From Actinocatenispora thailandica (GTDB lineage: Bacteria; Actinomycetota; Actinomycetes; Mycobacteriales; Micromonosporaceae): a stretch of DNA of 64,000 bases. The DNA is taken from NCBI RefSeq assembly GCF_016865425.1, contig NZ_AP023355.1, positions 6,260,198 to 6,324,197 on the forward strand. Direction: 5' to 3'. Each line of letters opens with the position of its first letter. Position 1 is the first letter of the stretch. Of the stretch, positions 17,854 to 49,763 are shown one piece after another. Under the pieces are notes generated by a model. It had not been told where the DNA came from. It saw only the letters and a list, made by a program, of their open reading frames with translations, and did not search any database. A program made the translations under genes and the position numbers.

Positions 17854-18216
17854 TCAGATCCTTTCCTCACGCAGCTCGGTGACCTCCGCCGCCGGCGCCC
17901 AGGCCTGGTAGACGCCGCGGTCGAACCGCTCCAGCCCGAGAGCCTCGGCGACCGGTGCGCGGCCACCCGTGTACTCCACCCGCAGCCAGTCACCGCGGTC
18001 ACCGAGCACCTTGAACGGCTCGCCGCGCCAGACGCAGCGGGTGGTCAGGTAACCGAACCGGGTCACCGCACCGAACGCCACCACCCGCCGGAACCGGCCG
18101 GGCGCCACCTCGTCGAACCCGTCGCGCACGGCGTCGGCGTAGAGGTGCAGGGCCGCGCCGTCCGGCGACGCCTCGAAGTCGGTGCCGTCGAACGTCGCGT
18201 AGTAGCCGTCCCGCAC
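17854..18216 (-). CDS. T7SS-island module protein, 120 aa (copy 2)
   Basis: Paralogue of the 119-aa protein at 14721-15080: both begin RDGYYA, share RFGYLTTRCVWRGEPFKVLG-like central strands and end in a FDRGVYQAW...VTELREE helix. GTG 18216 starts one base after the TGA of the upstream SseB-like gene, with GGGGAGGG 5 nt before it, so the two are coupled. The repeated pairing of an SseB-like protein with this module at two places suggests they act together. No catalytic motif is visible. Function unknown. Confidence 0.78.
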   Translation of the reverse strand: MRDGYYATFDGTDFEASPDGAALHLYADAVRDGFDEVAPGRFRRVVAFGAVTRFGYLTTRCVWRGEPFKVLGDRGDWLRVEYTGGRAPVAEALGLERFDRGVYQAWAPAAEVTELREERI

Positions 18217-18217
18217 G

Positions 18218-19105
18218 TCAGCCCTCCCCGCCGGCCTTGCGGTGCCACGTCCGGAGATCCGCGTCGTACACCGCGGCGAGCGACTGCGCGCCGTCGGCGG
18301 CGATCCGCCACATCTCCGCATGGTGCGGCAACCGGACACTGTCCACCTTGTACTCCGGGACGGCCAGCCGGGAGTCCGCGACATACCCGTTGCCCAGGAA
18401 CGGCGGATGCTCGATCACCCAGCCGTCCGGCATCGCGTGCACCGTCGCCTCGTCGGTCCCCCCGTACGGCACCCGGTAGAGGTCGGCGCAGTAGCCCGGC
18501 CACCGGATCACGTGCAGCTCGGCCGGCTCCGCCGGAAACGGCGAACCGGGAAACGCCAGGCCCAGATTCGCCACCAGGTCGGCCGGCGTGCGCAGCGACC
18601 GGGTGTCCTGCCAGCGATGCACGTACCCGGCCACGAAGCCGTAGCCCGCGTCGAGGTAGGCCGGCAGCATCGGCGGCGGCACCACCTTCTGCATCGCGGC
18701 CGGGGTCGGCCGCCGGGCCGGCACCGTGAAGTCACCCGAGGCGACCTGCCGCACCAGCCGCGGCGCCAGGTTCATCGCCAGCGGCAGCCCCGCGTCGACC
18801 GCGAGCCACCACCGCTCGTTCGGCCACTGCTCCGCCAGCGCGGCCAACCGCACCTTGCGGTACGACTCGAACCCGCCGCCGGTCCCGGCGGCCATCGCCC
18901 GCGCCGAGGAGTATGCCGCGACGTGGGTCCGCTCACCCAGCTCGACGGTGGCGAACGCGACCTGCCCGTTCACCACCGAGCCGGGCGCCATCGGCAGGAC
19001 CAGGTCGAGGTCGGCGAGCAGCCGCAGGTAGCTCGCCGGGTCGTCGTGTTGCAGCGCGGCGAGCATCGCGGACTCGGTCTCGTCGACCGGTTCGTACCTG
19101 ACCAC
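18218..19105 (-). CDS. SseB-like protein with toxin-shared C-terminal module, 295 aa
   Basis: Residues 1-120 form an SseB-like domain (TESAMLAALQHDDPASYLRL; ERWWLAVDAGLPLAMNL), related to both SseB domains of the 1046-aa protein. Residues about 150-290 form a second module: GYVHRW, LRTPADLVANLG, ELHVIRWPGYCADLYRVPYG, WVIEHPPFLGNGY, and VPEYKVDSVRLPHHAEMWR. The last part matches the end of the 1046-aa protein and a middle domain of the large toxin. The module could be an ADP-ribosyltransferase-like or purely binding fold; this is speculation. GTG 19105 has GAGGAGG upstream. It is cytosolic and lies in the leftward run after the toxin and immunity genes. Confidence 0.78.
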   Translation of the reverse strand: MVRYEPVDETESAMLAALQHDDPASYLRLLADLDLVLPMAPGSVVNGQVAFATVELGERTHVAAYSSARAMAAGTGGGFESYRKVRLAALAEQWPNERWWLAVDAGLPLAMNLAPRLVRQVASGDFTVPARRPTPAAMQKVVPPPMLPAYLDAGYGFVAGYVHRWQDTRSLRTPADLVANLGLAFPGSPFPAEPAELHVIRWPGYCADLYRVPYGGTDEATVHAMPDGWVIEHPPFLGNGYVADSRLAVPEYKVDSVRLPHHAEMWRIAADGAQSLAAVYDADLRTWHRKAGGEG

Positions 19106-19222: not shown

Positions 19223-19882
19223 TCAGCGACCCAGCACCAGATCCGCCGCGCGGTCCAGCACGGCGCCGGCCACCTCCCGCGGTGCCGCGTAGTTCGCCGA
19301 TCGGATGTGCGCCAACAGGTCCGGCTCCGGCGCGATGCCGTACTCGGCGGCGAAGTAGGCCAGCGCCTCCGACCACACCCACACCCCGTCGGTACGCACG
19401 TGCAGCGGCACCGCAGCACCCCGCTCGGCGTCGAACGGGTCGGGGTCGGATCCGTTGGCCCGCAACACGACCGGCGCCCGCCGGAGGTACGCGGCGACCG
19501 CGCCACGCTCGGCCCGGGACAGCGCGGGGCGGGCGGGATCGGCGACCGGCCGGCCGTCTGGTCCGGGCCGGTCGAACACCTGCGCCAGCCGCAACCCGGT
19601 GTCACCCCGGGCCGCCGCGGCACCCCGCTCGTCCGCCGCCCGCCAGGACCGTTGCCAGCGGTCGATCACCGCCTGCGCCTGCTGCGCCGAGATCGGCACC
19701 AGTTGCTCGTCGAGGTCACCGATGTCGTCGGCGGCCAGCAGGCCGGTCGGATGCCAGCGCCCGTCCCGCTGGTACACCTCGTCGGTCGGCAGCGGTTCGG
19801 TCGCGGTGCGCCGCACCAGGCTCCGCGGCCGCTCCACCGTGTCACCGGCGTCGAGCCGCGCGAAGTACGTCACCTCAGGCAT
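19223..19882 (-). CDS. Hypothetical protein with RTDGxWVWS module, 219 aa
   Basis: The N-terminal half (VTYFARLDAGDTVERPRSLV) is unrecognised. The C-terminal half (about 130-215) has RAERGAVAAYLRRAPVVL, then VRTDGVWVWSEALAYFAAEY and IAPEPDLLAHIRS. This second half is shared with the N-terminal half of the 281-aa protein at 28019. The module recurs in T7SS-linked proteins of actinobacteria as far as I recall, with no assigned function. ATG 19882 has GGGGGTGG 6 nt upstream. It starts 30 bp after the SUKH immunity gene, so it is likely co-transcribed with the toxin module. Confidence 0.72.
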   Translation of the reverse strand: MPEVTYFARLDAGDTVERPRSLVRRTATEPLPTDEVYQRDGRWHPTGLLAADDIGDLDEQLVPISAQQAQAVIDRWQRSWRAADERGAAAARGDTGLRLAQVFDRPGPDGRPVADPARPALSRAERGAVAAYLRRAPVVLRANGSDPDPFDAERGAAVPLHVRTDGVWVWSEALAYFAAEYGIAPEPDLLAHIRSANYAAPREVAGAVLDRAADLVLGR

Positions 19883-19912: not shown

Positions 19913-20950
19913 TCACGGCTGTTCCGCCGGCGGAAGGCTCGCGCCCGCGTCCGGATCGTCGACGAGCTGGGCGTGGCCGTTGTCCACCGCACTCCGGACC
20001 ACTCCCAGCAAAGGCTCTGGCACCAATCGGAGCGAGGCCCAGAAGTCCTCGAAGTCGTCTCCACAGCGATGCAGCAAGTGGCCGCAGATGTACTCGGCGT
20101 CGTAGCGCTCCGCATCGTTCCGATCGTCGTCGTCCCAGTACCAGACCGATCCGGAATCATCGCCGTGCACCTTCACGGCAATCATGCCGCCTTGGACCGG
20201 CCCAACCGCCAGGAAATCGTGGGTGAAACGATCCGAGACCCACATGTTGACAAACGAAAGCTCCTCGAACCAGCTGTTCCGAGCGATCCCGAAGAACGGC
20301 TGGTCGACGATGAAACCATGCTCCGGATGCACGCCCGGATGCCTCGGGAACCCACCGTTGGTGGCCATGACGAACCCGCGATACGAGCCGGGCAAGCGGA
20401 CGTTCAGGTGCTCCTCCACCTTGTGGACGGCCGCTTCGGACACCTCTTGCAGCGGTACCAGCGGAACGTATTCGTCGGCCGAACCCGTCGGCAGTTCCAG
20501 CCCCGTCCGATGCCGGTTCACCTCGAGGGTGGCGACCCCACCACCGTGTCGAAACGAATCATGCAGCGAGCTGGGCACCAGCGCGAGCCTGCGCGATCCC
20601 GCGAGGTGCGCCCAAACCCAACCCTCCGGCGTGTGCGGGACGGGGCCACGCCGCTCGGCCAGCGGATCAGCGGCGAGCAGCAGCAATTCGTTGGCCGCGA
20701 GCACGTCGGTGACCCTGACCTCGTCGACGGCAAGGCCCGGTGGCGGCGGCGGCATTTCCACCACGGCACGCGCGTACGGAATCCAGTCCGGAAAACCACG
20801 CAGGTCGATGTACACGCCATCCGGATACAGCGCGCGCAGCTCTGGGTTCGTGGGCTGAAACATCTGCCCAGCCAGCGAACTCACCGGGAATTCTTCACGA
20901 GGCTGAGACATGATTCCCCACAACGTGCCCGGGTCGAGGTCAATGCTCAT
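19913..20950 (-). CDS. SUKH (SMI1/KNR4) immunity protein fused to a degenerate WHH-nuclease domain
   Basis: A 345-aa cytosolic protein. Residues about 40-140 match the C-terminal nuclease domain of the toxin immediately upstream: GVYIDLRGFPDWIPYARAVV against GVYVNLHGFPDFTPYARVLV, and LVPSSLHDSFRHGGGVA against LIPTEVHEAVRHYGGVA. The nuclease WHH triplet reads WAH here, losing the central His. Residues about 165-310 are an SMI1/KNR4 (SUKH) domain: VEEHLNVRLPGSYRGFVMAT and SVWYWDDDD. SUKH proteins neutralise nuclease toxins of polymorphic systems. Possible starts are ATG 20995 (overlapping the toxin stop), 20950 and 20911; 20950 is a compromise. The text is visibly less GC-rich than its neighbours. 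Confidence 0.8.
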   Translation of the reverse strand: MSIDLDPGTLWGIMSQPREEFPVSSLAGQMFQPTNPELRALYPDGVYIDLRGFPDWIPYARAVVEMPPPPPGLAVDEVRVTDVLAANELLLLAADPLAERRGPVPHTPEGWVWAHLAGSRRLALVPSSLHDSFRHGGGVATLEVNRHRTGLELPTGSADEYVPLVPLQEVSEAAVHKVEEHLNVRLPGSYRGFVMATNGGFPRHPGVHPEHGFIVDQPFFGIARNSWFEELSFVNMWVSDRFTHDFLAVGPVQGGMIAVKVHGDDSGSVWYWDDDDRNDAERYDAEYICGHLLHRCGDDFEDFWASLRLVPEPLLGVVRSAVDNGHAQLVDDPDAGASLPPAEQP

Positions 20951-20984: not shown

Positions 20985-22208
20985 TCAGATGCCATCGGTG
21001 TCCCCCGCCGTCCGGACGAAGTCCGGCGGAACCGCGATCGGCGTGCCGTGAATCGGACCGGTGTATGTCGCGTCGCCCTGCTGGTGATTGTCCTTGAGTT
21101 TGCTCGGCGACCACTCACCGGGCCGCGGCGTCCGTGTCAACGATTCGACGGAGCTGGGTGGCGTCGGTGGTTCCGACTCGGCGTCCGATCCAGCCGGCGC
21201 CGGCGGCTCACCACGACTGTCCGCGGGTGACGCAACGGTCCCGGTACCGGCGCTGTTCGCAGTGGCAACTCCGCCATAGTGCCGCACGGCCTCGTGCACC
21301 TCGGTAGGGATCAGGATGAGATGCCGGGCGCCTTCCAGGTGGTGCCAGGTATGCGAATCCTGTAGCGCGGCGAACAGCTCCGGATCGTTCTTGTACATCT
21401 CCTTCAGCAGATTGTCGCAGGCGGCGATGTCCTTCTCCCGCAGGGCGTCACCGCGCAGCGCAACACCGTCCGCGCCAACCGGAAGGTCCGGCGGGAGTTC
21501 GACCAACACTCGTGCGTACGGCGTGAAGTCAGGGAAGCCATGCAGATTGACGTACACACCCTTGTCCTGCATCTCGGCGGCCAGCTGCGGCTTCCCGTCC
21601 GCCGCGATCCTGTCCACCAGGTCGCCGCGGACCGTGACGAGCTGGCCGGCGTACTGACCGTTGCTGATCCTCCTGACCTTGGTTTCGTCGAGACCAACGG
21701 CCTCGGCGCCTTGCTCACGCAGATGCTGCACCTGCTCGTCCAGGTTCCTGCCCTGGCTCTGCCGCGACTGGTCGTCCTCCCCCTGCTCAGCGGATGGTTC
21801 GTTCGAGCCGGGCTCCCGCGGTGAGCCAAGCGCCGGCCGCTGATCCGCGCCCGGCAGCGAACGGCCGTCGGTGTCGGCCAGATGAGTCTGGTAGTCGGCG
21901 AGCATCCGGCGCTGCCATGCCGACAAGGTTGCCGGATCGCGGTCAGCCCAGTCCAGAACCTCCTGCACCCGCTCGGGTGTCAGCCGGTACTCGCCGCGAC
22001 GCTCCGTTCCGCCCGCGGCGTGATGCCGGGCCGCGTCGTAGAAACTGACCTTACGATCCGAGACCTTCGGCAGCTTCTGGCTCAGGTACTTGTTCGCCCG
22101 GGGCAGCGCATTCGGGTTCTGCCGGTCATTGTCGGAGAAGCGTTCCGTTGGCCATCCGTCACCGGCCGGAGGGCGCGCCGAACGTGCCCGCGCATCCGTC
22201 TCCACCAC
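20985..22208 (-). CDS. Toxin fragment 3: C-terminal WHH-type HNH/EndoVII nuclease domain
   Basis: The frame runs to the true stop. Its real start as part of the toxin is near 22560, where LTPEQYARG continues from fragment 2. The first part completes the CPD-like protease: IKLSACDAGHG, with the candidate catalytic Cys, then ARRIAEALGREVKAPTEKLW. A charged linker follows. The last domain has GVYVNLHGFPDFTPYARVLV, DSHTWHHLEGARHLILIP and TEVHEAVRHYGG, the WHH signature of HNH/EndoVII-fold nucleases that act as contact toxins. All expected His residues are present, so the domain looks catalytically intact. An independent product from the internal start is unlikely. Confidence 0.8.
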   Translation of the reverse strand: MVETDARARSARPPAGDGWPTERFSDNDRQNPNALPRANKYLSQKLPKVSDRKVSFYDAARHHAAGGTERRGEYRLTPERVQEVLDWADRDPATLSAWQRRMLADYQTHLADTDGRSLPGADQRPALGSPREPGSNEPSAEQGEDDQSRQSQGRNLDEQVQHLREQGAEAVGLDETKVRRISNGQYAGQLVTVRGDLVDRIAADGKPQLAAEMQDKGVYVNLHGFPDFTPYARVLVELPPDLPVGADGVALRGDALREKDIAACDNLLKEMYKNDPELFAALQDSHTWHHLEGARHLILIPTEVHEAVRHYGGVATANSAGTGTVASPADSRGEPPAPAGSDAESEPPTPPSSVESLTRTPRPGEWSPSKLKDNHQQGDATYTGPIHGTPIAVPPDFVRTAGDTDGI

Positions 22209-23695
22209 GCCGCCAGAACCGCGCGGTTCGCTCGGCGTACCGGTCGGGTGCTCGTCACTGGCCAGCTGGCTGCCGGTCTCGTGGCCGTCGGAGTCGAACG
22301 AGCGCCAGCGACCGTCCGGCGGGATGGTGGGGCGGCGGCCGTTGTTCGGGTCGGAGGAGGCGACGACCTCGTTGCCGTGCCGGTCGGTCCAGAGCTTCTC
22401 GGTCGGTGCCTTGACCTCGCGGCCGAGCGCCTCGGCGATGCGCCGCGCCGGCGGGTGTTCACCGTGCCCGGCGTCGCAGGCGGACAGTTTGATCCTGTTG
22501 TCCCCCAGGGTGATCCGGCCCTCGTCGGCCAGCCGCTGGATGCCCCGGGCGTACTGCTCGGGGTCAGCAGCTTGTCGCCGACCCTGAGGTAGCCGTCCCG
22601 GGTGGCATGCGAGTCGAGGTTGACGTAGCCGTCCTCCGGCCGCGCCGCGTCGGTGTACGGCCGCATCTCCGGGTCGCCGGTGAACTCGTACCCGGCCGGT
22701 GTCTCGCGGGCGTGCTCCGCCATCGCCGCGTGCGCCTCGTCGTCGGACACCTGCTGCGGCAGCTCGTCCGGCCCGTCGTCGGCCTCCGCGGCCTCGTCAC
22801 GCCCGTCCTCGTCGGGCAGCTCGTCGCCGTGGCGCCGCTCGCTGCCATCGCCGCCGCGCTGGCCGTCCTCGTCGCGCAGCTCGTCGCCGTGGCGCCGCTC
22901 GCTGCCGTCGCCGCCGCGCTGGCCGTCCTCGTCGCGCTGGCGGGGACGCCGCTCGTCGCCGTCCTGCCCGCTTCCCTGATCGCGCTGGTCGCGCTGGTCG
23001 TCGCCGTCCTGCCGGCTCCCCTGGCCGCGCTGCTCGTCGCGCTCCGGCGGCGCGTGCCGGCCGCCGACCGGTTCGACGCCGGGCGGTAGGCCGACGCCGG
23101 CCGCGCCCTCCGGTACCGGGACCTGCCGGAAGATCTCGTTCTGCTGCTCCTGCAGCCGGGCCGCCTCGGCCGGATCCCCGGTGGTGCGCTGCCGCTCGTA
23201 GATCTCGTGGGTGTCCATCTTCGCGGCGAAACTCTCCGGGGTGTGCACCTGCACCTCGAAGACCTGCCCGGTGCGCGGGTCGTGCCAGAAGCTGTTGATT
23301 CCCTTGTACTTCTCGCCGCCCCAGGTGTTCTTCGGCTCGACCCACGGCTCGTAGCCCTGCTCCGCCAGGTGGTCGAAGACCTGCTGCGCGCCCGCGCCGT
23401 ACGACTCGGCGGGCATCTCGACGGTGTAGCGGACGGTGTCCTTCATGCCGTGCGCGATCTCGGGCAGCGTGCTGTCCGGACTCTGCGCGATCTCGTCGGC
23501 GAACTTGCGCTTGAACGACTCCTCGCTCTTGCGCGAGTGCTCCTCGCCGACCAACCGGCCACCGGGTACGGACGCCGCCGTGTCCCGCAGGTCCCGGGTG
23601 ATGCCCGGCTCGTTGCTCTGCGCGTCGGCCAGGATGCCGTCGGCGTAGGCGTTCTCCGCCTCGGTCAGGCTACGACCCTCGCCCCGCCAGCCCAC
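22082..23695 (-). CDS. Toxin fragment 2: RelA/SpoT-like (p)ppNpp synthetase domain and start of CPD-like protease
   Basis: Genuine toxin coding in this frame runs from about 23850 to 22562; the remainder to 22082 is out of frame. The domain has an ATP-binding stretch SRKSEESFKRK (compare R.K...S...K of synthetases), the metal Asp in MKDTVRYTVEM, the G-loop-like KYKGINSFW and FEVQVHT, equivalent to VEIQIRT of RelA. It resembles secreted ATP nucleotide 3'-pyrophosphokinase of Streptomyces and Tas1-type (p)ppApp-making toxins, so depleting ATP in a target cell is the inferred role. An Asp/Arg/Gly repeat linker leads to NLDSHATRDGYLRVGDKLLT, the candidate protease His region. Confidence 0.78.
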   Translation of the reverse strand: MGWRGEGRSLTEAENAYADGILADAQSNEPGITRDLRDTAASVPGGRLVGEEHSRKSEESFKRKFADEIAQSPDSTLPEIAHGMKDTVRYTVEMPAESYGAGAQQVFDHLAEQGYEPWVEPKNTWGGEKYKGINSFWHDPRTGQVFEVQVHTPESFAAKMDTHEIYERQRTTGDPAEAARLQEQQNEIFRQVPVPEGAAGVGLPPGVEPVGGRHAPPERDEQRGQGSRQDGDDQRDQRDQGSGQDGDERRPRQRDEDGQRGGDGSERRHGDELRDEDGQRGGDGSERRHGDELPDEDGRDEAAEADDGPDELPQQVSDDEAHAAMAEHARETPAGYEFTGDPEMRPYTDAARPEDGYVNLDSHATRDGYLRVGDKLLTPSSTPGASSGWPTRAGSPWGTTGSNCPPATPGTVNTRRRGASPRRSAARSRHRPRSSGPTGTATRSSPPPTRTTAAAPPSRRTVAGARSTPTATRPAASWPVTSTRPVRRANRAVLAAWWRRMRGHVRRALRPVTDGQRNASPTMTGRTRMRCPGRTST

Positions 23696-26600
23696 GTCGT
23701 CCCGGTCGGCACCGTCCCCCTCGTCGCCACTTTCCCCGGCATCCGCTCGCTCGTCGCCGTCCCCGTCGCTCGGCTCGCCCGCACCGCGGTCCTCGGCATT
23801 CGACCCGTCGTCGCCGCGGTCCTCGCCGCCCGGCCCACTCTCGCCACGGCCCCGCCGCCGGGCTCGTCGTCGGCGCCCGGTCGGTCGTCGGCGCCGGCCG
23901 GTTCCTCGAAGTTCAGGGGATCGTCGTCGGCGCCCGGTCGGTCGTCGGCGCCGGTCGGTTCCTCCGAGTTCGGGGGGTCGTCGTCGGAGCGGGAGCGCAG
24001 GTCGTCACCCGGGCCGGCAGTGGGATCGGTCGGGGTGTCCGGGCCGCGTCCGGGCCCGCTGTCGTGCCACGGATCCGCGTCGTAGTCGCCGGCCCTCGAT
24101 GCGTCGAAGCGGCGGTCGGCCTGCCAGTCGCTGCCGTCGAACCGGGCGACGATCCGCTCGCTGCCGTCGGCGTTCTGCTGCCAGATCTCGGCACCCTCGG
24201 GGATCGGGATCGCGCCGCCGGGCGCGTTCGGGTCGCCGATCTTCACCTCGGGCACCGCGTACCCGTCCATCGAGCTGTTCCGGTGCTGCGGGTCGTAGAT
24301 CCCGTCGCTGTCGGTGTAGCCGGCGCCCATGAACGGCCCGTACTCCAGCTCGTCCGGCCCGGTCGTCCGGTCATCGTCGACACCCGGCGTGCCCTGCATG
24401 TCGTCCGAGAACGCCGGGACGAAGTGCTCCGGATCATCGGCCGGGAACCGCAGCGCGAAGTTGTGGTGCTGCTCCGGGCCGAAGGTGGTGCCGTCGAACG
24501 TCAGCGCGTACCCGTCGTAGTTGCGCTCCGGCGTGTTCAACTCGCGGACGTCGTCGTGCCGCGCACCGAACCCGCGCACCGAGTCGTGGTAGTCCCCGTT
24601 GTTGAGCATCGACTCCGCGGCGCCGGGGTTGAGCACCTTCTGCACGATGTCGCCCTGCTGGATCGCCGCCTCGTTGCGGATCGCGGCCATCCGGTCCTTG
24701 GTCGCCTGGTCGTACGTGTTCGGGTGCCGGCGCCGGTCCTCGTCGAAGCGCTGCCGGCGCTCCTGTGGAGTGTCGCCGGGGACCCCGTGGCGTTCCAGGA
24801 TCTGGTCGAGTTGGTCGTGGTGCGCCGGCACATCCGGCGCGCTGTCGTCGCCGTACTTCCCTTCGTACTCGGTGCCGTCCGGCAGCTCGATGCGGTGGTC
24901 CCGGTCGCTCGGGCCCGGCCCGGCGGGCTCGTCGGTGCCCTCGGCGGGCGGTGGCTGGTCCGCCGCACCGGGCGGCTCGTCTTCGCCGGGCGGGCCGGCC
25001 TCGTGGTCGGCGGACCGGGGCCGCCACTCGTCCGGCTCCCCTCCGGCGGGTTCCTCGCCGGGCGCGCGCCCCGCCGGCCGAACACTCTCGTCGCCGGGCC
25101 GGTGCCGGAGGTCCTCGCTTCCAGGCCGGGTCCGGGGATCCTCACTTCCGGGCCGGGTCCGGGGATCCTCGCTTCCGGGCCGGTGCCGGGGATCCTCGCT
25201 TCCGGGCCGGTGCTGGGGATCCTCGCTTCCGGGCTGGTGGTGTGGGCCCTCGCGGGTCGAGCGGTCGCCGCCTGGCTCGTCACCGGGCCGCGCCGGGCGG
25301 CGATCCTCGGCCGGCGGCCCGGTGGTACCGGCCGGATCGGTGGTGCCGGTGCGCTGCTCCGGCACCGGTTCCGGCCGTGGCTCCGCTCCGGGCCGTGTGG
25401 CCCCGAGCCCCGGGCCCGGCTCCGGCGGCGCCCCGGAGCCCTGCTCCGGCCGTCCGGCGGACTCGGGCCGTGGTCCCGCCGGGCCGGAACCATCCGGCCG
25501 GGCGGTCGGTTCCGCGGCGGGCGGTCGCGCGGTCGAAGCCGGGCCCGCGTCCAGCTCCGGCCGCGACGTCGAAGCGGGGCCCGCCTCGGGCCGCGACCCC
25601 GCAACAGAACCCGACTCGGGCCGCGTGATCGAAGCAGGCCCCGGCTCGGGTCGCGACCCCGAAACAGGACCCGACTCGGACCGCGAAGTCGGTTCGGTGG
25701 GCGTCGGTCCCGGGCGGGCCGCCGGCTCCGCGGTGCGCTGGCCCGGCACCCCGGGCCGCCGCTCGACCGGGTGGCTCTGCTCGCCCGAGCCGGCCGACCG
25801 CGGCGCCGGTGGTCGACCGCTGCCGGGCTCGCCCGGCAGCGGCGCACCGTCCGGGCGGCCGGACGAGCCGGGCTCGCGCGCCGCCTCCGCCGGCCCACCG
25901 CGGTACCCGTGCCCCCCGTCGCCGCCACCGCCGGATCGTGGCGCCGAGCCGCCCGTACCGCCCCGAGCGCCACCCGGCCCGCCGCCGGAACCGCCCACCC
26001 CACCGAGGCCGACGCCCGGCAGGCCACCGGCCACCGGTCCGCCGCCGGCACCGGTGCTGGCGGCCGGATCGGCCGCCCGCGGTGCCTGTTGCGGCGCGGG
26101 GGTGGGCGTCGGTGCCAGTACGGTCGGTTCGCCAGCCCCGCCGGCGTCCGCCAGCGCGGAACCACCGGTGCCGGGCCGCGCCGTACCGCCGCTCGGGCCG
26201 CCCGACCCGCCGCCGTGGCCACCGCCCAGGCCGGTCGGGCCACCGCCGGCCCCCACACCGGAGCCCGAGTCGACCGATCCGCCGGCGTCGCCGTGCGACG
26301 ACTCGCGGCCCGAGCCGGAGCCGGACGACTCGTGGTACGCCGCCTCGGCGTGCGCCGGTTCATGCTGCGCGGACTCGGCGTGAACCGGCTCGGCGTGAAC
26401 CGGCTCGGTGTGGGCCGGCTCGGTGTGGGCCGGCTCGGGGTGGGCCGGCTCGGCCCGGGTCGGCTCCGAGTACGCGGTGGGCTCGGTCCGGGCTGGCTCG
26501 GCGGAGCCGTTCAGCGCGCTGTGGATCGGGTCGTGCGGCGCGGTGTCGGTGCGCTCCACCGGCTGCTCGTTCCGGGTCGGCGCCTCCTCGGACGAGGTGC

Positions 26601-27870
26601 CCGAGCGGGGCTCCTCGGTCCGCTGCGCCCCCTCCGACCCATCGGACGGTTCCCGGGCCGGCTCCTCCGACCCGCCCGACGGCTCCCGACCCGGCCCTTC
26701 CGAGCCACCGGACGGGTCGCCGCGCGCTTCCCCGGTACCCGAACCACCCGGCTCGGCGCCGCGGTGACCGCCGGGCTCGCCCCCGCCGGAACCACTCGGC
26801 TCGCCCCCGCCCGAACCGCCCGCCTCGCCACCGCGATAGCCGCCGGACTCCGCCCCACCCGAACCGCCGGGCTCGTCGCCGCTGCCGGTACTGCCCGGCT
26901 CACCGCCGCCGGTACCGCCGGGTTCGTCGCCGAAGCCGGGTGGCGGCGGCACCTCGTCGCCGCCGCGACCGCCGCTCTCCGGCCCGCCGCGCTCACCGGG
27001 CGGGCCGCCCGGCTCGTGCTCCGACCCACCGCCCTCCTCGCCGCGGTGCCCGGCGAGGCCACCGGCCGCGCCGGAGGTACCGGCCTTGAGCAGGCTTTCC
27101 GGGTCGAGCGACTGGCCGTGCGCCGCGGCGTCGGCGATCCCGCCGGCCACACCACCGAGGGCGCCGTTGACCACCTCGCCGCCGAGGGTGTGCGCGAAGC
27201 CACCGGCGGCCTTCCCGAACCCGACGCCGGCCAGACCGCCTGCGGCGCCGGTGATCGCGCCGTCGATGACGTCGCCCTGGACCTTGCTCCAGTCGAGCGA
27301 GGTGCGGTGCCCCTCACCGATCTGCACCAGCTGGATCGCGACGTCGGTCAGGACGTTCTGGATGATGTTCATGACGATCGCCTTCAGCACCTGCTGGGCG
27401 ATCGTGCGGACGGTGATCTGGGTGGCGACCTCGGCGACCGGGATGCCGGCGGTCGAGGCGCCGAACGTCTCGATCGCGTTCGCCAGCATGATGGCGATCT
27501 GGATGGCGAGGATGATCAGTGCCGCGATGAACTGGTACTTCGCGTACTCGATCTCGGTACCGGTGCTGTCGCAGTGCTGCCCGAGGCCCTCCAGCAGCTT
27601 CGCCAGCTTCTCGATGTAGCCGTCCTCGCCGCCGGTGCCCGAGGTGTACTTCGACCAGTACTGCCCGAGGTTGTCCGCGGCCTGCCCCTGCATGCCGGCC
27701 AGCACGTGGTAGTAGGCGCTGTCGCCCTGGTCGATCAGCTCGCGGAGCTCGCCGGCGGCGGTGTTGTAGGCCTCGGCCATTCGCCACATGCCGTCTTCGT
27801 CGCCCTCGGGCCAGTCGGACCCGACCACCCACTCCAGCCACTTCAGTTCGGACGGCAGCTCCATCCCCAC
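23665..27870 (-). CDS. Toxin fragment 1: T7SS N-terminal region, membrane segments and repeat-rich linker
   Basis: GTG 27870 follows GGGAGGG by 8 nt; ATG 27864 is the alternative. Residues 1-110 are the helical N-terminus common to actinobacterial T7SS toxins (SDWPEGDEDGMWRMAEAYNT). Hydrophobic segments follow (FIAALIILAIQIAIMLANAI) and a Gly/Ala zipper (GAITGAAGGLAGVGFGK). About 650 residues of Gly/Ser/Pro/Glu repeats, including GSEDPRTRP and EPAHTEP units, form the linker. The end has a globular module (GPFMGAGYTD, YAVPEVKIG, IPEGAEIWQQNADGSERI) like the C-termini of the SseB-like proteins. After about residue 1340 the frame becomes Arg/Thr-rich nonsense, marking the first frameshift. Confidence 0.82.
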   Translation of the reverse strand: MGMELPSELKWLEWVVGSDWPEGDEDGMWRMAEAYNTAAGELRELIDQGDSAYYHVLAGMQGQAADNLGQYWSKYTSGTGGEDGYIEKLAKLLEGLGQHCDSTGTEIEYAKYQFIAALIILAIQIAIMLANAIETFGASTAGIPVAEVATQITVRTIAQQVLKAIVMNIIQNVLTDVAIQLVQIGEGHRTSLDWSKVQGDVIDGAITGAAGGLAGVGFGKAAGGFAHTLGGEVVNGALGGVAGGIADAAAHGQSLDPESLLKAGTSGAAGGLAGHRGEEGGGSEHEPGGPPGERGGPESGGRGGDEVPPPPGFGDEPGGTGGGEPGSTGSGDEPGGSGGAESGGYRGGEAGGSGGGEPSGSGGGEPGGHRGAEPGGSGTGEARGDPSGGSEGPGREPSGGSEEPAREPSDGSEGAQRTEEPRSGTSSEEAPTRNEQPVERTDTAPHDPIHSALNGSAEPARTEPTAYSEPTRAEPAHPEPAHTEPAHTEPVHAEPVHAESAQHEPAHAEAAYHESSGSGSGRESSHGDAGGSVDSGSGVGAGGGPTGLGGGHGGGSGGPSGGTARPGTGGSALADAGGAGEPTVLAPTPTPAPQQAPRAADPAASTGAGGGPVAGGLPGVGLGGVGGSGGGPGGARGGTGGSAPRSGGGGDGGHGYRGGPAEAAREPGSSGRPDGAPLPGEPGSGRPPAPRSAGSGEQSHPVERRPGVPGQRTAEPAARPGPTPTEPTSRSESGPVSGSRPEPGPASITRPESGSVAGSRPEAGPASTSRPELDAGPASTARPPAAEPTARPDGSGPAGPRPESAGRPEQGSGAPPEPGPGLGATRPGAEPRPEPVPEQRTGTTDPAGTTGPPAEDRRPARPGDEPGGDRSTREGPHHQPGSEDPQHRPGSEDPRHRPGSEDPRTRPGSEDPRTRPGSEDLRHRPGDESVRPAGRAPGEEPAGGEPDEWRPRSADHEAGPPGEDEPPGAADQPPPAEGTDEPAGPGPSDRDHRIELPDGTEYEGKYGDDSAPDVPAHHDQLDQILERHGVPGDTPQERRQRFDEDRRRHPNTYDQATKDRMAAIRNEAAIQQGDIVQKVLNPGAAESMLNNGDYHDSVRGFGARHDDVRELNTPERNYDGYALTFDGTTFGPEQHHNFALRFPADDPEHFVPAFSDDMQGTPGVDDDRTTGPDELEYGPFMGAGYTDSDGIYDPQHRNSSMDGYAVPEVKIGDPNAPGGAIPIPEGAEIWQQNADGSERIVARFDGSDWQADRRFDASRAGDYDADPWHDSGPGRGPDTPTDPTAGPGDDLRSRSDDDPPNSEEPTGADDRPGADDDPLNFEEPAGADDRPGADDEPGGGAVARVGRAARTAATTGRMPRTAVRASRATGTATSERMPGKVATRGTVPTGTTWAGGARVVA

Positions 27871-28018: not shown

Positions 28019-28864
28019 TCAGTCGATCGCGATGCGCTCGATCCGTTGCGGGGACGGTCGATCACGCCATCCCGGACCGACCGGGTAGTGCCGGTGCTCG
28101 GCGATCACCTCGGTCACCGCGGACTCCGGCACCTCGCCGGTCCAGTCGCCCCGGTCGACCATGCGCATCGCCACCACACCCGGGTACGCGTCGTTCCCGG
28201 CCCGGACGAGGTAGCGCCCGTCCCGCTGGCCGACCACCGCGATCCGGTGCCCGCGCACCAGCACGTACGTCACCCGGCCGTACAGGTCGTCCAGCTCGGC
28301 GCGCGGGATCAGCCGGGCGTACTCGCCGCCGGGCAGGCCGGTCGGGTCGAAGCCGTCCGCGAGCGCGGTGGCATTCCTGGTGTACGCGGTCGTCGGTTCG
28401 GCCGCCCAGCTCGCCGACCGGCACACCCGGCCACGGAACACCGCCCGCGAGTACGTCAGGCCGGCCCCGACCGGCGCCGGATCGGGCGGCGTCGCGGCCA
28501 GCGCCGCGCGGACCCGCGCCACCGTCCCGGAATCTGCCGTCGGATCGCCGTGCGGGCGCGCGATCCACCGCAGGAAAGCCGGCTCCGGCGCCACCGCGTG
28601 CTCGGTCGCGTAGTACGTCAGCCGGTCCGACCAGACCCAGGTACCGTCGGTGCGCACCACCGGCCGCAGCACCGCGCCGCGGGCGGCGTCCAGCTGGTCG
28701 ACATCGCGTACCGACGAGTCGAGCACCACGGCACCCGCCGCCAGGTAGTCCGACACCCGGCGCCGATCGGCCGGGGCGAGGCGGCGGAGCCGATCCGCCC
28801 GCGGCACCCAGAACCGCGGGCCGAACACCATCGCCACCCGCGGCCACACCTCGGTCACCAGCAC
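28019..28864 (-). CDS. Two-module T7SS-island protein, 281 aa
   Basis: Residues about 30-130 match the C-terminal half of the 219-aa protein at 19223 (VVRTDGTWVWSDRLTYYATEH; VAPEPAFLRWI). Residues about 150-265 match the free-standing 119/120-aa proteins at 14721 and 17854 (the strand series leading to VTYVLVRGHRIAVVGQRDG and MVDRGDW). It is thus a natural fusion of two modules encoded separately elsewhere in the island, implying they work together. It lies 148 bp upstream of the giant toxin on the same strand. GTG 28864 is used; in-frame GTG 28858 fits the GGGGGTG stretch equally well. Function unknown. Confidence 0.72.
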   Translation of the reverse strand: MLVTEVWPRVAMVFGPRFWVPRADRLRRLAPADRRRVSDYLAAGAVVLDSSVRDVDQLDAARGAVLRPVVRTDGTWVWSDRLTYYATEHAVAPEPAFLRWIARPHGDPTADSGTVARVRAALAATPPDPAPVGAGLTYSRAVFRGRVCRSASWAAEPTTAYTRNATALADGFDPTGLPGGEYARLIPRAELDDLYGRVTYVLVRGHRIAVVGQRDGRYLVRAGNDAYPGVVAMRMVDRGDWTGEVPESAVTEVIAEHRHYPVGPGWRDRPSPQRIERIAID

Positions 28865-28972: not shown

Positions 28973-30484
28973 TCAGCGACCCGGCGGGCGCGGCGGCGGG
29001 CCGCCGGCCTGCGCTCCGGGCGGCTGCGGCCACAACGGCTGCGCCGGTGTGGGACCACCGGGCCCCGGTGGTCCCGGAACCGAACCACCGACCGGCGGCG
29101 CCCCGGGCGGCGACCCCGATGGAGGCCCCGGCGCCCCGGGCGGCGGCGCCGGAGATCCGGCGATGCCGGTCGGCGTCGGGCTGGACCCGGCTGGCGGCAT
29201 CCCGCCCGGCACGGTCGGCTGCTGGTATCCGCCCGGCTGCGCCGCCCCGTACGCCCCGGGCAGGCCCGGATATCCGCCGGGCCCCGCCGCGCCCACGGGC
29301 GGACCGCCGCCGCGCCCCGATCCGTTGCCGCGACGGCGCCGACGGCCGGCGAGCACCACGATCAGCACGATGATGCCAACGACCACCAACAACCCGACGA
29401 CCGCGAACGTGATCCAACCCCGGGTACTGATGTGCGCGTGGAACGCGCCCGCGGTGCGCACCGGATGGGTCGCGGTCGAACCCGCGCTGGCGCCGCCGCC
29501 GGTACCGCCGCCGAGCGGGTTCTTCGTCACCGTGGGCACGTCCTTGGTCAGCGCGTCCACCGGCCGCACCGTGCCGTAGCCGAAGTAGTTGTCCCGGCCC
29601 GGATCACCCTGGTCCTTCGCCGTCTCGACCAGCCGGTTGATCACGTTGGCCGCGTCGAGCTTCGGGTACTTGGCCCGGATCAGCGCCACCGTGCCGGCCA
29701 CGATCGGCGCCGCCATGCTCGTCCCGTCGGCGGACTGGTACTCGGAGTTCCCGTCCGTCGACCCGGTGGACACGATGTCCACGGCCGGTGCGGCGATCAC
29801 GACCTGCTTGCCGGACACCGATCCGGACCAGAAGTTCGATGCCTTGTCGGCGCCCGAGACCGCGACGACGCCCGGGATCGCGGCCGGTGACGCGACGGCG
29901 GACATGCCCTCGCCGGTGTTCCCGGCGGCCGCCACCACGACCACGTTCTTGGACAGCGCGTAGTCGACGGCCGAGACCTCGTCGGACGGCGGCGTGTCGT
30001 ACACGCCGCCGGAGGAAATGTTGATCACCTGAGCGCCATGGTCGACGGCGTAACGGATGCCCGTCGCGATCTCCTTGTCGGAGAACTTGTCCGGCAACTC
30101 GACCGGCATGATCTTCGCGCCCGGAGCCACCCCCACCACGTGGTGCAGCCCGCCGCCGCGGGCGGCGATGACACCCGCGACACCGGTGCCGTGCGTGCTG
30201 GAGGTCGATCCCCCGCCGATGGCCGTACCCGAGACGAGCTGGCCGGACAGATCCGGGTTGCTGCCGTCGATCTTGCCGTCGATGACAGCCACCACCACAC
30301 CGCCACCCCGGGTGATGTTCTGCGCCTTGGGGATCTGCAGCGCATCCACGTACCACTGCTGCTGGCGGATCGGCGTCGCGCTCGCCGTGGCCGGCATGAG
30401 CAGGGCCAGCCCGGCGGCCGTCGCGCCGGTCAGCGCCCACCGGGCCCGGCGAGCCCAGCCACCCGTCCTCCGATCGACTCGCAT
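28973..30484 (-). CDS. mycP: Mycosin-like subtilisin protease (type VII secretion), copy 2
   Basis: A 503-aa S8 protease with N-terminal signal (WALTGATAAGLALLMPATAS), Asp in VVVAVIDGKIDGSN, His in STHGTGVAGVIAA, VVVVAAAGNTGEG, and Ser in DGTSMAAPIVAG. A transmembrane helix (WITFAVVGLLVVVGIIVLIVV) anchors it, followed by a Gly/Pro-rich cytosolic tail of about 110 residues. The catalytic Asp is followed by GKID rather than the usual SGV, a small variation. It starts 4 bp after the effector gene and ends the esx/effector operon, the classical position for an ESX mycosin, so this copy is the best candidate to serve the adjacent EccC system. Confidence 0.92.
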   Translation of the reverse strand: MRVDRRTGGWARRARWALTGATAAGLALLMPATASATPIRQQQWYVDALQIPKAQNITRGGGVVVAVIDGKIDGSNPDLSGQLVSGTAIGGGSTSSTHGTGVAGVIAARGGGLHHVVGVAPGAKIMPVELPDKFSDKEIATGIRYAVDHGAQVINISSGGVYDTPPSDEVSAVDYALSKNVVVVAAAGNTGEGMSAVASPAAIPGVVAVSGADKASNFWSGSVSGKQVVIAAPAVDIVSTGSTDGNSEYQSADGTSMAAPIVAGTVALIRAKYPKLDAANVINRLVETAKDQGDPGRDNYFGYGTVRPVDALTKDVPTVTKNPLGGGTGGGASAGSTATHPVRTAGAFHAHISTRGWITFAVVGLLVVVGIIVLIVVLAGRRRRRGNGSGRGGGPPVGAAGPGGYPGLPGAYGAAQPGGYQQPTVPGGMPPAGSSPTPTGIAGSPAPPPGAPGPPSGSPPGAPPVGGSVPGPPGPGGPTPAQPLWPQPPGAQAGGPPPRPPGR

Positions 30485-30488
30485 CGCG

Positions 30489-31652
30489 TCAACCGCCCAG
30501 CACCGACGGCGCGCTGTCGTCGTTGCCGCCCCACGGGTCCTCGTCCTCGGTCAGCCAGGTGTCCCGGCCGTCGCCGGCACCGCCGCCGTGTCCACCGTGG
30601 CCGCCGCCCAGCACGCCGCGGCCGAGTGCGCCCCGGCCCGCGCCGGCACCGCCGGCGCCGACGAAGCCGTCCGGGGACACCGGCTTGCCCACCGGGCTGC
30701 CACCGGCGCCGGTCCCGGCACCGAGCCCGCCGCCACCCACGCCGGCGCCGGTCGGGGCGCCGCCGCCGGCACCGGCGAGCCCGGAACCGGCGCCTCCGCC
30801 GCCGCCACCGTGCGAGCCGAGCCCGCCGTGGTCGGTGTTCGGGTAGGGATGGTCGTCGAGCGAGTCGTGGCTGGGCACCTTGTGTTCGGTGTTCGGCAGG
30901 TCGGGCTTCGGATGCCGGGTGTCGGGCGTCTTCGTGTCCGGCATCGTGCCCGAGCCGGTGTCCGGCATGCTGCCGGCACCCGGGCCGGTGCCGGTGCCGG
31001 TGTCGGTCCGGTCGTCGTTGTTCAGGCTCAGCTGGGTGTTGTTCGGCGACGGGCTGCCCGCCTTGATGTTCGCGTTGTCGTACTCGTTGTTCGTACCGGC
31101 GAGGATGTCCCGGGCCTGGTCCTCGGTGTCGGTGAACCACTTGGTGAACTGGTCGCTCACCCACCCGAGGACGTCGCCGGCGACGCCGCTCACCCAGTTG
31201 TCGTAGAGCTTGTCCTTCCAGTCGCCGGGAAGGGCCAGCGTGATGAGTCCGTTGGTGGCGATGGCGTTGCGGTCGATCGCCTGCTGGTGCATCCAGCTGA
31301 CGTCGTCGTACATCTCCGCCGGGATCGGCATCTGGTCCTGCAGGCTCTGCAACTGGCTGGAGCAGCTGTCGAGCAGGTTGACGACCTTGGACTTGTTGTC
31401 GGTCTCGATCTGGTGGATCTGGTCCGAGATCTTCTTGATGTTGTCCCGGTAGGCGTCGCCGGCGCTGCCCTTCCAGTCCTTCAGATCCTTGATCAGGGTG
31501 TCCAGCTCCTCCTTGACCGAGTCGGCGTTGCGGAACACGCCCTTCCACCGGTCGGAGGCCGCGGACAAGGTAGCCGGGCTGCCGTTCACGCAGGACGCCG
31601 TGACGATGTCGTCCCAGCTCATGTCGCCCGGATCGGCGGCGAGATTGCCCAT
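30489..31652 (-). CDS. ESX-secreted effector with WXG fold and C-terminal WLTEDE motif, 387 aa
   Basis: The N-terminal about 210 residues are helical with a WXG turn (KDWKGSAGDAYRDN) and further helices (WMHQQAIDRNAIATNGL). A Thr/Asp/Pro linker and a Gly-rich region follow. The C-terminus carries DTWLTEDEDPWGGNDD. Nearly the same motif ends the effector at 44282-45442, so it may be a sorting or maturation signal. ATG 31652 overlaps the previous operon gene by a stop-G-ATG junction. It lies between a small helical partner and a mycosin, as expected for an ESX substrate. No enzymatic domain is visible. Confidence 0.82.
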   Translation of the reverse strand: MGNLAADPGDMSWDDIVTASCVNGSPATLSAASDRWKGVFRNADSVKEELDTLIKDLKDWKGSAGDAYRDNIKKISDQIHQIETDNKSKVVNLLDSCSSQLQSLQDQMPIPAEMYDDVSWMHQQAIDRNAIATNGLITLALPGDWKDKLYDNWVSGVAGDVLGWVSDQFTKWFTDTEDQARDILAGTNNEYDNANIKAGSPSPNNTQLSLNNDDRTDTGTGTGPGAGSMPDTGSGTMPDTKTPDTRHPKPDLPNTEHKVPSHDSLDDHPYPNTDHGGLGSHGGGGGGAGSGLAGAGGGAPTGAGVGGGGLGAGTGAGGSPVGKPVSPDGFVGAGGAGAGRGALGRGVLGGGHGGHGGGAGDGRDTWLTEDEDPWGGNDDSAPSVLGG

Positions 31653-31653
31653 C

Positions 31654-32097
31654 TCAGTACCCCGATCCGGTCGCCGTGGACGTCGTCGTGCTCGGCGAAC
31701 CGTTCGAGCCGCCGGCATCGGCGAACGCCTTCATGATGTTCTTCGAGTTGGCGTCGTTGAGCTCTTCGGCGTCGTCGTACTTCTTGATGATCTCCTTCGT
31801 CGCCTTGATCGCGACATCGAGATTCTTCGCGACGTTGCCGTAGTCGTTGTAGATCGTCTTCAGGTACTGCTGGTGCGTCCCTGCGGACTTCACCGCGTTC
31901 TGGAACTTGCCGAACGGGACGGTGTGGTCCGCGCCCAGGCAGTCCTTGCCCTTGATGTCGAGGATTTCCTGGGTCAGCCGGTCCTGCACGTACTTCTTGA
32001 GGTCCTCCAGGATCGGCACCACGTTCTTCAGGTGGTCGGTGTCGACCTCTGCCTTCTCGGCTGCACCCGGGTGGAAGCTGTAGTCCGTGCCCATCAT
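31654..32097 (-). CDS. ESX-associated helical protein, 147 aa
   Basis: A mainly helical protein beginning TDYSFHPGAAEKAEVDTDHL and containing KYDDAEELNDANSKNIM, then a short Ser/Thr/Gly tail. The NDANSK phrase is shared with the 121-aa protein at 43917, which likewise precedes an effector gene, so the two are paired partners of their effectors. There is no signal peptide. Two tandem ATGs (32097, 32094) follow GGAAAGG; 32097 is used. It is separated from the esx pair by a terminator-like hairpin, so it is probably made at lower levels than the Esx proteins. Confidence 0.78.
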   Translation of the reverse strand: MMGTDYSFHPGAAEKAEVDTDHLKNVVPILEDLKKYVQDRLTQEILDIKGKDCLGADHTVPFGKFQNAVKSAGTHQQYLKTIYNDYGNVAKNLDVAIKATKEIIKKYDDAEELNDANSKNIMKAFADAGGSNGSPSTTTSTATGSGY

Positions 32098-36100: not shown

Positions 36101-37102
36101 GGCGCCGGCCAGCTGGCAGTCCGGCGCGACCTCGCCGCCGTCCAGAATCACCAGCAGGTGCGGCACCTCCGTGATCGGTTTGGCGTCCGGCGAGTGCCGC
36201 GGGCGCGCGGCGATCTCGTCGCCGAGCAGCTCCTCCAGCTCCCGCATCGTCTCGAACACCAGCCGGGACGCGCCGGCCGCGTCGCTGCGCCGCGAGTACT
36301 GGTTGTGCGGCAGCCACTTGACCCAGTCCCAGGTGGCGAAGTTCTCCGTCGGGGTCACCACGGCAATCCGCAGGTCGTCCGGTGCGTGCAGCACCGCGGC
36401 CTGGCAGAGCAGGGAACGGGCGGCACCGAGGTCCGCCTCCCGGTCGCCGCGCAGCACGATCCGGCTGAACGCGCGGAACGACACCGCGGTCGGCAGGTTC
36501 GGCACCGTGTTGAAGGTACGGACGAAGCGGCGCAGCGCGATCGCGCTCATCGGCTCCAGGTCCTCGACCGGTTTCGTCTCCGGCGTGACGATCTTGACGG
36601 CGAGTTTCTGCGGGCCCACCGCGACCCGGACCTCACCGAAGTCGTCGTCGTTGACCCGCCGCTCCCACATCCGCCGCGACGCGGCGATCGACCACAACGC
36701 GTCCGGCTCCGGGTGCTTCCAGGTCAGCGCCGAACGCTGCGCCTCCGCCGCCCGCCGCACCCGTTTGCGTACCTGCGCGAGGTAGCGCATGTAGTCGCGC
36801 CGCTCGGCGTTCAGCTCGGCCTTCTTGTCGCCGCTGCCGCCACCGATCTGGCCGACCGCCATGCCCAGCATCGACACCCCGAACATGCCCCCGGCCAGGT
36901 AGGTCATCATGCCGCCGCCGCGGCCCGCGTACATGAAGGCCATCGCGCCGGCGCCGGCCAGCATCGGCAGGATCATCAGGATCTGGCCGATGCTGCGGGG
37001 CAGCTGCTCCGGCACCTCCGGCGGCGACTCCAGCAGGAGTTCACCACGCGGCAACTGCGGGCCGGGCCGTCGGGCCGGGCGTCGGAACACCACCGTCGTC
37101 AT
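33143..37102 (-). CDS. eccC: Type VII secretion ATPase EccC (fused EccCa/EccCb)
   Basis: A 1319-aa motor of the ESX system. Two N-terminal transmembrane helices lie around residues 40-90 ([39 protein letters not shown]). Three FtsK/SpoIIIE ATPase domains have P-loops GATGSGKSE (about 476), GSPQSGKST (about 833) and GDSECGKSS (about 1117). The first has [11 protein letters not shown] as Walker B; later ones are less canonical, as usual for EccC. It recognises the YxxxD/E signal of WXG100 pairs. ATG 37102 follows GGAGG; upstream in-frame sequence is tandem repeat, not protein. It is the only EccC in the window. Confidence 0.97.
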
Positions 37103-46883: not shown

Positions 46884-47033
46884 AGTGTCCTCCCGTTTTG
46901 ACGGATTCCGGCCCACCATAGCGACTCGGGACGGTCCCGGCGTTCCCGACCGCGGCACGGTGCGGAACGCGGCCGGGGCCCGCCGGGCGGTACGCTCCAC
47001 CGCGACCCGTCGTACCCAGGAGGCCGGCCTACC

Positions 47034-49655: not shown

Positions 49656-49763
49656 ATGGAGCGAGCCGGCCCAGGCTCCGGTGTGACCCGGCACACTCCC
49701 GGTTCGGGGGCCGGGGAACCGGTCAGCCGGGCCGCTTCCGGCAGACTCTGGCAGGTGCAGAGC

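What the first reader, a model, noticed from the sequence alone, without database searches (positions are those of the whole stretch)
20985..27870. Giant T7SS toxin with three C-terminal activities: RelA/SpoT-like synthetase, CPD-like protease and WHH nuclease
Restoring one base at each of two homopolymers gives a 2295-aa protein. Seen: T7SS-type N-terminus, long linker, synthetase motifs (SRKSEESFKRK, KYKGINSFW, FEVQVHT), a protease-like pair (DSHAT ... LSACDAG) and an intact WHH motif. Family knowledge: the RSH part resembles ATP 3'-pyrophosphokinases and Tas1-type toxins; WHH proteins are nuclease toxins; CPD/C80 proteases self-cleave to free effectors. Inference: the protease cuts between two warheads, one depleting ATP and one cutting nucleic acid. 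I know of no described T7SS toxin with this order.
Basis: partly seen in the sequence, partly recalled or inferred. Interest (0 to 1): 0.88.

Follow-up and report, generated by a model that had tools for sequence, protein, structure and literature searches.

The report
Two-warhead bacterial toxin, swappable tip
A soil actinomycete carries a very large secreted toxin gene that joins a fixed alarmone-making enzyme, a protease-like release domain and an exchangeable nuclease tip, with separate likely antidote genes nearby; in this genome copy the reading frame changes twice, so whether this copy works is open.

Summary
Three minus-strand frames (27870-20985) align in order with one uninterrupted 2250-aa protein of Actinocatenispora comari, as far as its C-terminal tip. 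Piece 1 starts with a T7SS-type WXG100_2 domain (1.6e-27). Piece 2 holds an exported-alarmone-synthetase (EAS) domain (2.2e-33 to PDB 8vx3; six catalytic residues kept). A His...Cys protease-like domain spans pieces 2 and 3. Piece 3 holds a WHH nuclease domain above Pfam's cut-off.

New here: the part up to the protease-like domain is a constant chassis; the tip is swapped. Synthetase-then-protease order recurs in six genera of the family. A domain of a neighbouring gene (19613-19882) recurs beside the closest synthetases in 13 of 13 loci, in 15 of 26 synthetase loci overall, and in 0 of 28 loci without one: a candidate immunity family, distinct from the SUKH gene behind the WHH tip.

The parts are known (Zhang 2012; Ahmad 2025); my searches found no report of this order. 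New variant of a known kind. Release by the protease, and any alarmone gating, are inferred.

The parts
20985..27870 (-). giant T7SS-type polymorphic toxin gene, read in three frames (not mended)
   Evidence: intact orthologue P0005
27415..27858 (-). WXG100_2 domain (T7SS-type N-terminus)
   Evidence: PF25547, 1.6e-27, P0001 aa 5-152
23977..24843 (-). middle domain of unknown function, shared with the C-terminal part of the neighbour at 18218-19105
   Evidence: phmmer 1.3e-175 to A. comari, 8.4e-06 to the neighbour; dN/dS 0.25
23821..23860 (-). interval of the first frame change
   Evidence: ends of tblastn matches
23081..23680 (-). alarmone synthetase (RSH/EAS SYNTH) domain, D R K N E Q kept
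   Evidence: PDB 8vx3 2.2e-33; profile match aa 109-308 of the open frame; dN/dS 0.16
22556..22765 (-). protease-like domain, first part, with the His at 22609
   Evidence: profile match aa 414-483 of the open frame
22559..22574 (-). interval of the second frame change, inside the protease-like domain
   Evidence: ends of tblastn matches
22263..22565 (-). protease-like domain, second part, with the Cys at 22478
   Evidence: profile match aa 78-178 of the open frame
21255..21551 (-). swapped tip: WHH / colicin-type HNH nuclease domain
   Evidence: PF14414 1.9e-10, PF12639 1.8e-10; PDB 8bd1 0.0021
19913..20950 (-). downstream gene: WHH-like domain with the first His replaced by Ala, fused to a SUKH immunity domain; candidate immunity for the tip
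   Evidence: PF14414 6.9e-12, PF09346 3e-11; matches the tip itself 8.6e-18
19223..19882 (-). 219-aa gene; N-terminal domain (19613-19882) is the candidate immunity domain for the synthetase, C-terminal half is a common neighbour of such toxins
18218..19105 (-). 295-aa conserved accessory gene
   Evidence: conserved in A. comari; shares the toxin's middle domain
17854..18384 (-). 176-aa conserved accessory gene
   Evidence: conserved in A. comari
28019..28864 (-). 281-aa gene just upstream; shares a domain with the C-terminal half of the 219-aa gene
   Evidence: 4.2e-16 between the two
28973..30484 (-). subtilisin-type (mycosin-like) protease of the T7SS locus
   Evidence: PF00082 1.3e-46
30489..31718 (-). 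409-aa protein with weak WXG/PPE-like matches
   Evidence: below cut-off matches only
33143..37495 (-). FtsK/SpoIIIE ATPase with three matched stretches (EccC-like)
   Evidence: PF01580 4.6e-80

Best explanation
It is a T7SS-type polymorphic toxin with two payloads of different rank. The constant chassis (WXG100_2 export domain, long linker, a middle domain, an alarmone synthetase of the exported EAS family, and a His-Cys protease-like domain) carries a fixed metabolic payload, the synthetase. The tip behind the protease-like domain is exchangeable: a WHH nuclease here, an unrelated tip in A. comari. Most likely course: export by the T7SS whose genes lie next door; entry into a competing bacterium; the protease-like domain cuts itself free so that the nuclease tip separates; the synthetase drains nucleotide pools by making (p)ppGpp and/or (p)ppApp while the tip attacks nucleic acid. 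The producer is protected by two different genes: a SUKH-containing protein for the tip and the N-terminal domain of the 219-aa gene for the synthetase. Shown here: gene unity, domain order, conserved catalytic residues, tip exchange, purifying selection, linkage of the candidate immunity domain to this synthetase type. Inferred: export, entry, cutting, the product made, target and immunity function. In this genome the frame changes twice, so this copy may be broken, or the assembly wrong.
For: Single uninterrupted orthologue of 2250 aa. WXG100_2 1.6e-27, with FtsK-type ATPase and subtilisin genes beside it. Synthetase 2.2e-33 to the solved EAS structure 8vx3 with D, R, K, N, E, Q. Tip: WHH and Colicin-DNase above cut-off. 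Window and A. comari tips share no similarity; 27 regions behind the protease-like domain fall into 12 unrelated groups. Synthetase followed by protease-like domain in one gene in 7 of the 10 best protease-like loci of the family, in six genera. Protease-like domain sits 201-594 aa before the end in 21 of 21 ORFs of the order-level set. Candidate synthetase immunity domain in 13 of 13 loci with the closest synthetases, 15 of 26 overall, 0 of 28 without; in 9 of the 15 it starts within about 35 bases behind the synthetase (coordinates). dN/dS 0.13-0.49 for the domains.
Against: The window copy changes frame twice. No family library recognises the protease-like domain and its model is poor (pLDDT 47). 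Two of the nine aligned protease-like domains lack the His and one more lacks both residues, so it is not always a protease. 16 of the 27 best matches of the candidate immunity domain are not near a synthetase, and it is absent beside the more distant synthetases (L045-L051, L053, L077). The dead-WHH/SUKH gene type also follows a non-WHH tip in D. vinaceum, so it is not strictly tied to WHH tips. Pfam's RelA_SpoT model does not report the window domain. No export or toxicity was tested.
Confidence: 0.66

Rival explanations
1. Alarmone-gated release: the synthetase is not (only) a payload but the key of the lock. It makes alarmone where ATP and GTP are plentiful, that is inside the target cell, and the alarmone or GTP switches on the adjoining protease-like domain, as inositol hexakisphosphate does for MARTX and clostridial cysteine protease domains.
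For: Fixed order synthetase then protease-like domain in six genera; in three lineages the synthetase has lost its catalytic residues while the domain is kept beside the protease-like domain (L043, L044, L054), as a binding domain would be. Caspase-like toxin peptidases are said to be induced by GTP and inositol hexakisphosphate (PMC3482391, passage seen).
Against: The protease-like domain occurs without a synthetase in 21 of 21 ORFs of the order-level set and synthetases occur as the very tip without it (L036, L038-L042), so neither needs the other. No ligand pocket was tested.
Confidence: 0.1
2. A decaying gene: real frame changes in this strain have killed the toxin, and the downstream immunity genes are what is still selected.
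For: Two frame changes in one gene; the second cuts through the protease-like domain.
Against: Low dN/dS on both sides of both changes; A. comari is intact; another gene in the window also seems to change frame, which fits assembly error as well as decay.
Confidence: 0.35
3. An extracellular enzyme rather than a weapon: like SaEAS of Streptomyces albidoflavus, the synthetase makes alarmones outside the cell as a signal.
For: The nearest solved relative is SaEAS, proposed to act at low substrate outside cells (PMC12691689, sections 5, 9, 10, 11 read).
Against: Here the domain sits in a T7SS-type toxin with a nuclease tip and with candidate immunity genes; the authors report no immunity gene for SaEAS but one for the T7SS-linked AaEAS.
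Confidence: 0.08
4. The N-terminal domain of the 219-aa gene is a general T7SS accessory (chaperone-like) domain, not immunity.
For: 16 of the 27 best matches are not near a synthetase; in the window it is fused to a half that is a common neighbour of such toxins.
Against: It is absent from 28 of 28 fetched loci without a synthetase, including 20 with comparable protease-like toxins, while the other half is found beside many of these; as a small separate protein it directly follows even a free-standing synthetase gene (L037).
Confidence: 0.25

Closest known systems
Exported alarmone synthetases (EAS), including T7SS-linked AaEAS of Amycolatopsis azurea (Ahmad et al. 2025, PMC12691689; abstract, sections 5, 9, 10, 11 part 1 and passages seen)
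   Same: SYNTH domain of the same family with the same catalytic residues; T7SS-type N-terminus; small downstream gene thought to be immunity
   Different: In AaEAS the synthetase is the C-terminal domain. Here it is internal, followed by a protease-like domain and a second, exchangeable tip; the candidate immunity domain is fused to another domain two genes away
Polymorphic toxins with caspase-like processing peptidase just upstream of the tip (Zhang et al. 2012, PMC3482391; passages seen)
   Same: Internal protease-like domain just before an exchangeable tip, in actinobacterial T7SS toxins; RelA/SpoT, WHH and SUKH are all in their lists
   Different: The passages I saw describe RelA/SpoT as a toxin domain of T7SS toxins, not as a constant internal payload ahead of the release domain
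MARTX and large clostridial toxins with a C80 cysteine protease domain (recalled; plus listing and abstracts)
   Same: Works like: several payloads in one polypeptide and a His-Cys autoprotease
   Different: No sequence match; no repeat-type delivery; bacterial rather than animal targets inferred; fold not established
Tas1/Apk1 T6SS alarmone-synthetase toxins (from PMC12691689 and recall)
   Same: SYNTH fold toxin
   Different: Other secretion system; (p)ppApp specificity; single payload

Membership tests
Exported alarmone synthetase (EAS / RSH SYNTH) | sequence homology to the SaEAS SYNTH domain | tested here: met
   phmmer 2.2e-33 over residues 2-204 of piece 2 to 8vx3; 8VX3 is SaEAS
Exported alarmone synthetase (EAS / RSH SYNTH) | catalytic residues D121, R124, K154, N169, E182, Q184 (SaEAS numbering) | tested here: met
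   D R K N E Q in the window and A. comari; D. vinaceum has V at the K position
Exported alarmone synthetase (EAS / RSH SYNTH) | attached export domain | tested here: met
   WXG100_2 1.6e-27 at the start of piece 1, same frame as the synthetase in A. comari
Exported alarmone synthetase (EAS / RSH SYNTH) | makes (p)ppGpp or (p)ppApp; exported | not testable with these tools
   needs enzyme assay and secretion assay
Pfam PF04607 RelA_SpoT (the classical model) | match to the model at E <= 0.001 | tested here: not met
   own genome: 2 matches, both elsewhere; piece 2: no Pfam family
C80 / CPD-type cysteine protease (clan CD) | His then Cys dyad, each at the end of a strand | tested here: inconclusive
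   His and Cys both kept in 6 of 9 aligned domains and in the window; strand positions only from a model of pLDDT 47
C80 / CPD-type cysteine protease (clan CD) | family match or fold match | tested here: inconclusive
C80 / CPD-type cysteine protease (clan CD) | ligand-induced self-cleavage | not testable with these tools
   needs biochemistry
WHH nuclease (HNH/EndoVII) | Pfam match above cut-off and intact WHH motif | tested here: met
   40.7 bits against 25.1; motif TWHH
T7SS substrate / polymorphic toxin | constant N-terminal part, exchanged C-terminal tip, downstream immunity-type genes | tested here: met
   A. comari: similar up to the protease-like domain, unrelated tip, different following genes
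T7SS substrate / polymorphic toxin | secretion by the neighbouring T7SS | not testable with these tools
   machinery genes are adjacent

The most novel reading that the evidence does not exclude
The synthetase and the protease-like domain form a cytosol-sensing release unit: alarmone (or GTP-dependent alarmone synthesis) made only inside a target cell triggers the self-cleavage that frees the exchangeable tip, so a toxin payload doubles as its own arming signal; lineages with a dead synthetase would sense the target's own alarmone.
Probability: 0.08. Interest if true: 0.87.

Novelty: new variant of a known kind. Interest (0 to 1): 0.62.

Why it matters
Polymorphic toxins are normally described as a delivery stalk plus one exchangeable tip. 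Here an enzyme payload is built into the constant part and only the second payload is swapped, with apparently separate immunity for each. A competitor that gains immunity to the tip would still face the synthetase. It also offers a candidate immunity family for exported alarmone synthetases, which was not identified for SaEAS (PMC12691689), and a natural system in which to ask what switches on a cysteine-protease-like release domain in a bacterial target, where inositol hexakisphosphate is not expected (recalled).

Tried and rejected
Separate genes: rejected, because A. comari has one open frame. Classical RelA_SpoT model: does not report the window domain. Fold of the protease-like domain: the two-row alignment gave a poor model; Foldseek and VIA-align put MARTX protease domains near the top, but with no significance. 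Fold of the candidate immunity domain: good model (pLDDT 84), no PDB match at E <= 0.001, no Pfam match, best PDB sequence match 0.018 to an unrelated lectin. Synthetase in the 21 order-level protease-like ORFs: none found. A scan of viral contigs with the protease alignment could not start. Pfam on tips: of ten regions scanned only the YwqJ-type deaminase of L125 passed its cut-off, so the 'restriction-endonuclease-like' and 'ADP-ribosyltransferase-like' labels for the A. comari and D. vinaceum tips are my reading of motifs by eye and recall. Fisher test 14/0 against 0/20 (7e-10) is not used: the classes were chosen after the fact and the loci are related; the recount replaces it. Rate of frame changes in this genome: could only be gauged in the window: 54 A. 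comari ORFs were picked by codon composition, 36 matched the window, 6 of them in more than one frame; I judge 4 of the 6 to be shadow or overlap effects, leaving the toxin and one other gene. Literature searches for the combination: (listings and abstracts), and passages or sections of two papers; no preprints and few subscription papers are held, so absence is weak.
Full report
What is there. The window lies at 6,260,198-6,324,197 of a 7.43 Mb single-contig genome. A genome of the same genus is Actinocatenispora comari NUM-2625 (contig of the same length and a 100% match), so the window comes from an Actinocatenispora, a Micromonosporaceae genus (family recalled). On the minus strand three overlapping frames run from 27870 to 20985. 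Piece 1 starts with WXG100_2 (PF25547, 1.6e-27), piece 2 has no Pfam family, piece 3 has Colicin-DNase (1.8e-10) and WHH (1.9e-10), both above cut-off.

One gene. A. comari has one uninterrupted frame of 2250 aa. Aligned to the window it gives three collinear matches in three frames, 27975-23860, 23821-22559 and 22574-22242, and nothing in the tip. Compared piece by piece, the domains evolve under constraint (dN/dS 0.13 N-terminus, 0.25 middle, 0.16 synthetase, 0.49 and 0.29 protease-like) and the linker does not (1.18). The frame changes may be real or errors; of 36 A. comari ORFs that matched the window, 6 matched in more than one frame, 4 of which I judge to be shadow or overlap effects; that leaves this gene and one near 49.4-49.7 kb.

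Synthetase. Residues 2-204 of piece 2 match PDB 8vx3 at 2.2e-33. The deposit is SaEAS, the exported alarmone synthetase of Streptomyces albidoflavus (PMC12691689). The paper names R124, E182, Q184, N169, K154 and the inactivating D121A; all six positions are kept in the window (D R K N E Q). NCBIfam places the tail of the XopAD effector model on the same stretch (7.3e-28, far under its whole-protein cut-off). Pfam RelA_SpoT does not report it. The same paper reports T7SS-linked members and a tested one, AaEAS, which makes ppGpp and inhibits E. coli, with the synthetase as its C-terminal domain. In 354 genomes of the family, 117 have a match to the window's synthetase.

Constant chassis, swapped tip. 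A. comari is alike through the protease-like domain and then different; its tip and the window's share no similarity with each other or with 25 other regions behind such domains, and the 27 regions form 12 groups. The genes behind the toxin differ too: DUF6301 and TY-Chap3 in A. comari, a WHH-like/SUKH gene in the window, and then the conserved 219-, 295- and 176-aa genes in both.

Order in relatives. I fetched 20 synthetase regions of the family. In L035 (Dactylosporangium vinaceum), L043, L044 and L054, as in A. comari, the synthetase is followed by the protease-like domain in one frame; a later region, L077, adds a sixth lineage. Of the ten loci with protease-like matches at E <= 1e-10 in the family (11 rows), 7 have the synthetase ahead (window, A. 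comari, D. vinaceum, G313, G174, G100, G342), one starts at a contig edge (G104) and two have none detected (G139, G333). Synthetase residues are kept in the window, A. comari, D. vinaceum (V for K) and, by eye for D and R, L077; they are lost in L043, L044 and L054. Elsewhere the synthetase is the tip (L036, L038-L042), stands alone (L037, L052), or recurs: three catalytically complete copies in one frame of 2496 aa in Nocardia inohanensis (L087), and two or three copies in L047, L049, L050.

Immunity. The N-terminal domain of the 219-aa gene (19613-19882) was traced by an iterated profile. In the recount over 55 records (54 places) it is in 13 of 13 loci whose synthetase scores E <= 1e-70, in 15 of 26 loci with any synthetase, and in 0 of 28 without. 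In nine (L036-L042, L052, L086) it begins within about 35 bases behind the synthetase (coordinates). The free-standing gene pair in L037 looks like a toxin and its antidote. Against this: genome-wide, of the 27 best matches of the domain only 11 lie within 10 kb of a synthetase match on the same contig (plus G334, lower in the list), and the more distant synthetases lack it. Its other half is found beside many synthetase-free toxins. It models well (pLDDT 84) without a known fold. The gene directly behind the toxin joins a WHH-like domain, whose first His is Ala in 13 of 13 distinct proteins compared, to SUKH; 74 of 354 genomes have a match and 46 rows cover at least 265 of 324 residues. SUKH is a recorded immunity family for WHH toxins (PMC3482391), so it is the candidate immunity for the tip; but D. 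vinaceum has the same gene type behind a non-WHH tip.

Reading. Best supported is a two-payload polymorphic toxin: a fixed synthetase in the chassis, a generic release domain, and an exchangeable tip. The bold reading, that alarmone made in the target arms the release domain, fits the fixed order and the dead synthetases kept beside it, but the domain also works its place in 21 ORFs without one; I give it 8%. All parts are known kinds; I found no report of the order in six literature searches, which is weak evidence of absence.

Noticed in passing
window 19913-20950: Conserved fusion of a WHH-like domain with its first His replaced by Ala (13 of 13 distinct proteins compared) to a SUKH immunity domain; widespread in the family (74 of 354 genomes). 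A dead nuclease kept with its antidote may be a decoy or scaffold.
   Followed up: partly
G002:C24, around 178067-266146 (same genus; L082 holds part): One open frame of 39,582 aa (about 119 kb) with repeated protease-like domains; frames above 10,000 aa also in G001, G003 and G021.
   Followed up: no
L087 6290-13777 (Nocardia inohanensis): WXG100_2 protein with three tandem catalytically complete synthetase domains; a region behind them gives a sub-threshold match to PF03497 (E 0.01, 16.3 bits against 25).
   Followed up: partly
L049, L050, L047: Very large open frames with two or three synthetase-like domains each, a more distant type that lacks the candidate immunity domain.
   Followed up: no
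L043, L044, L054: Synthetase domain kept next to the protease-like domain but with catalytic residues lost; L043 also has a papain-fold Gln_amidase domain.
   Followed up: partly
window about 49.4-49.7 kb: A second gene that seems to change frame against A. comari.
   Followed up: no
window 18218-19105 and 23977-24843: A domain shared between the toxin's middle and an accessory gene (8.4e-06), unknown function.
   Followed up: partly
window 45582-50969: 1795-aa frame ending in a second subtilisin-type protease domain (PF00082, 4e-41).
   Followed up: no
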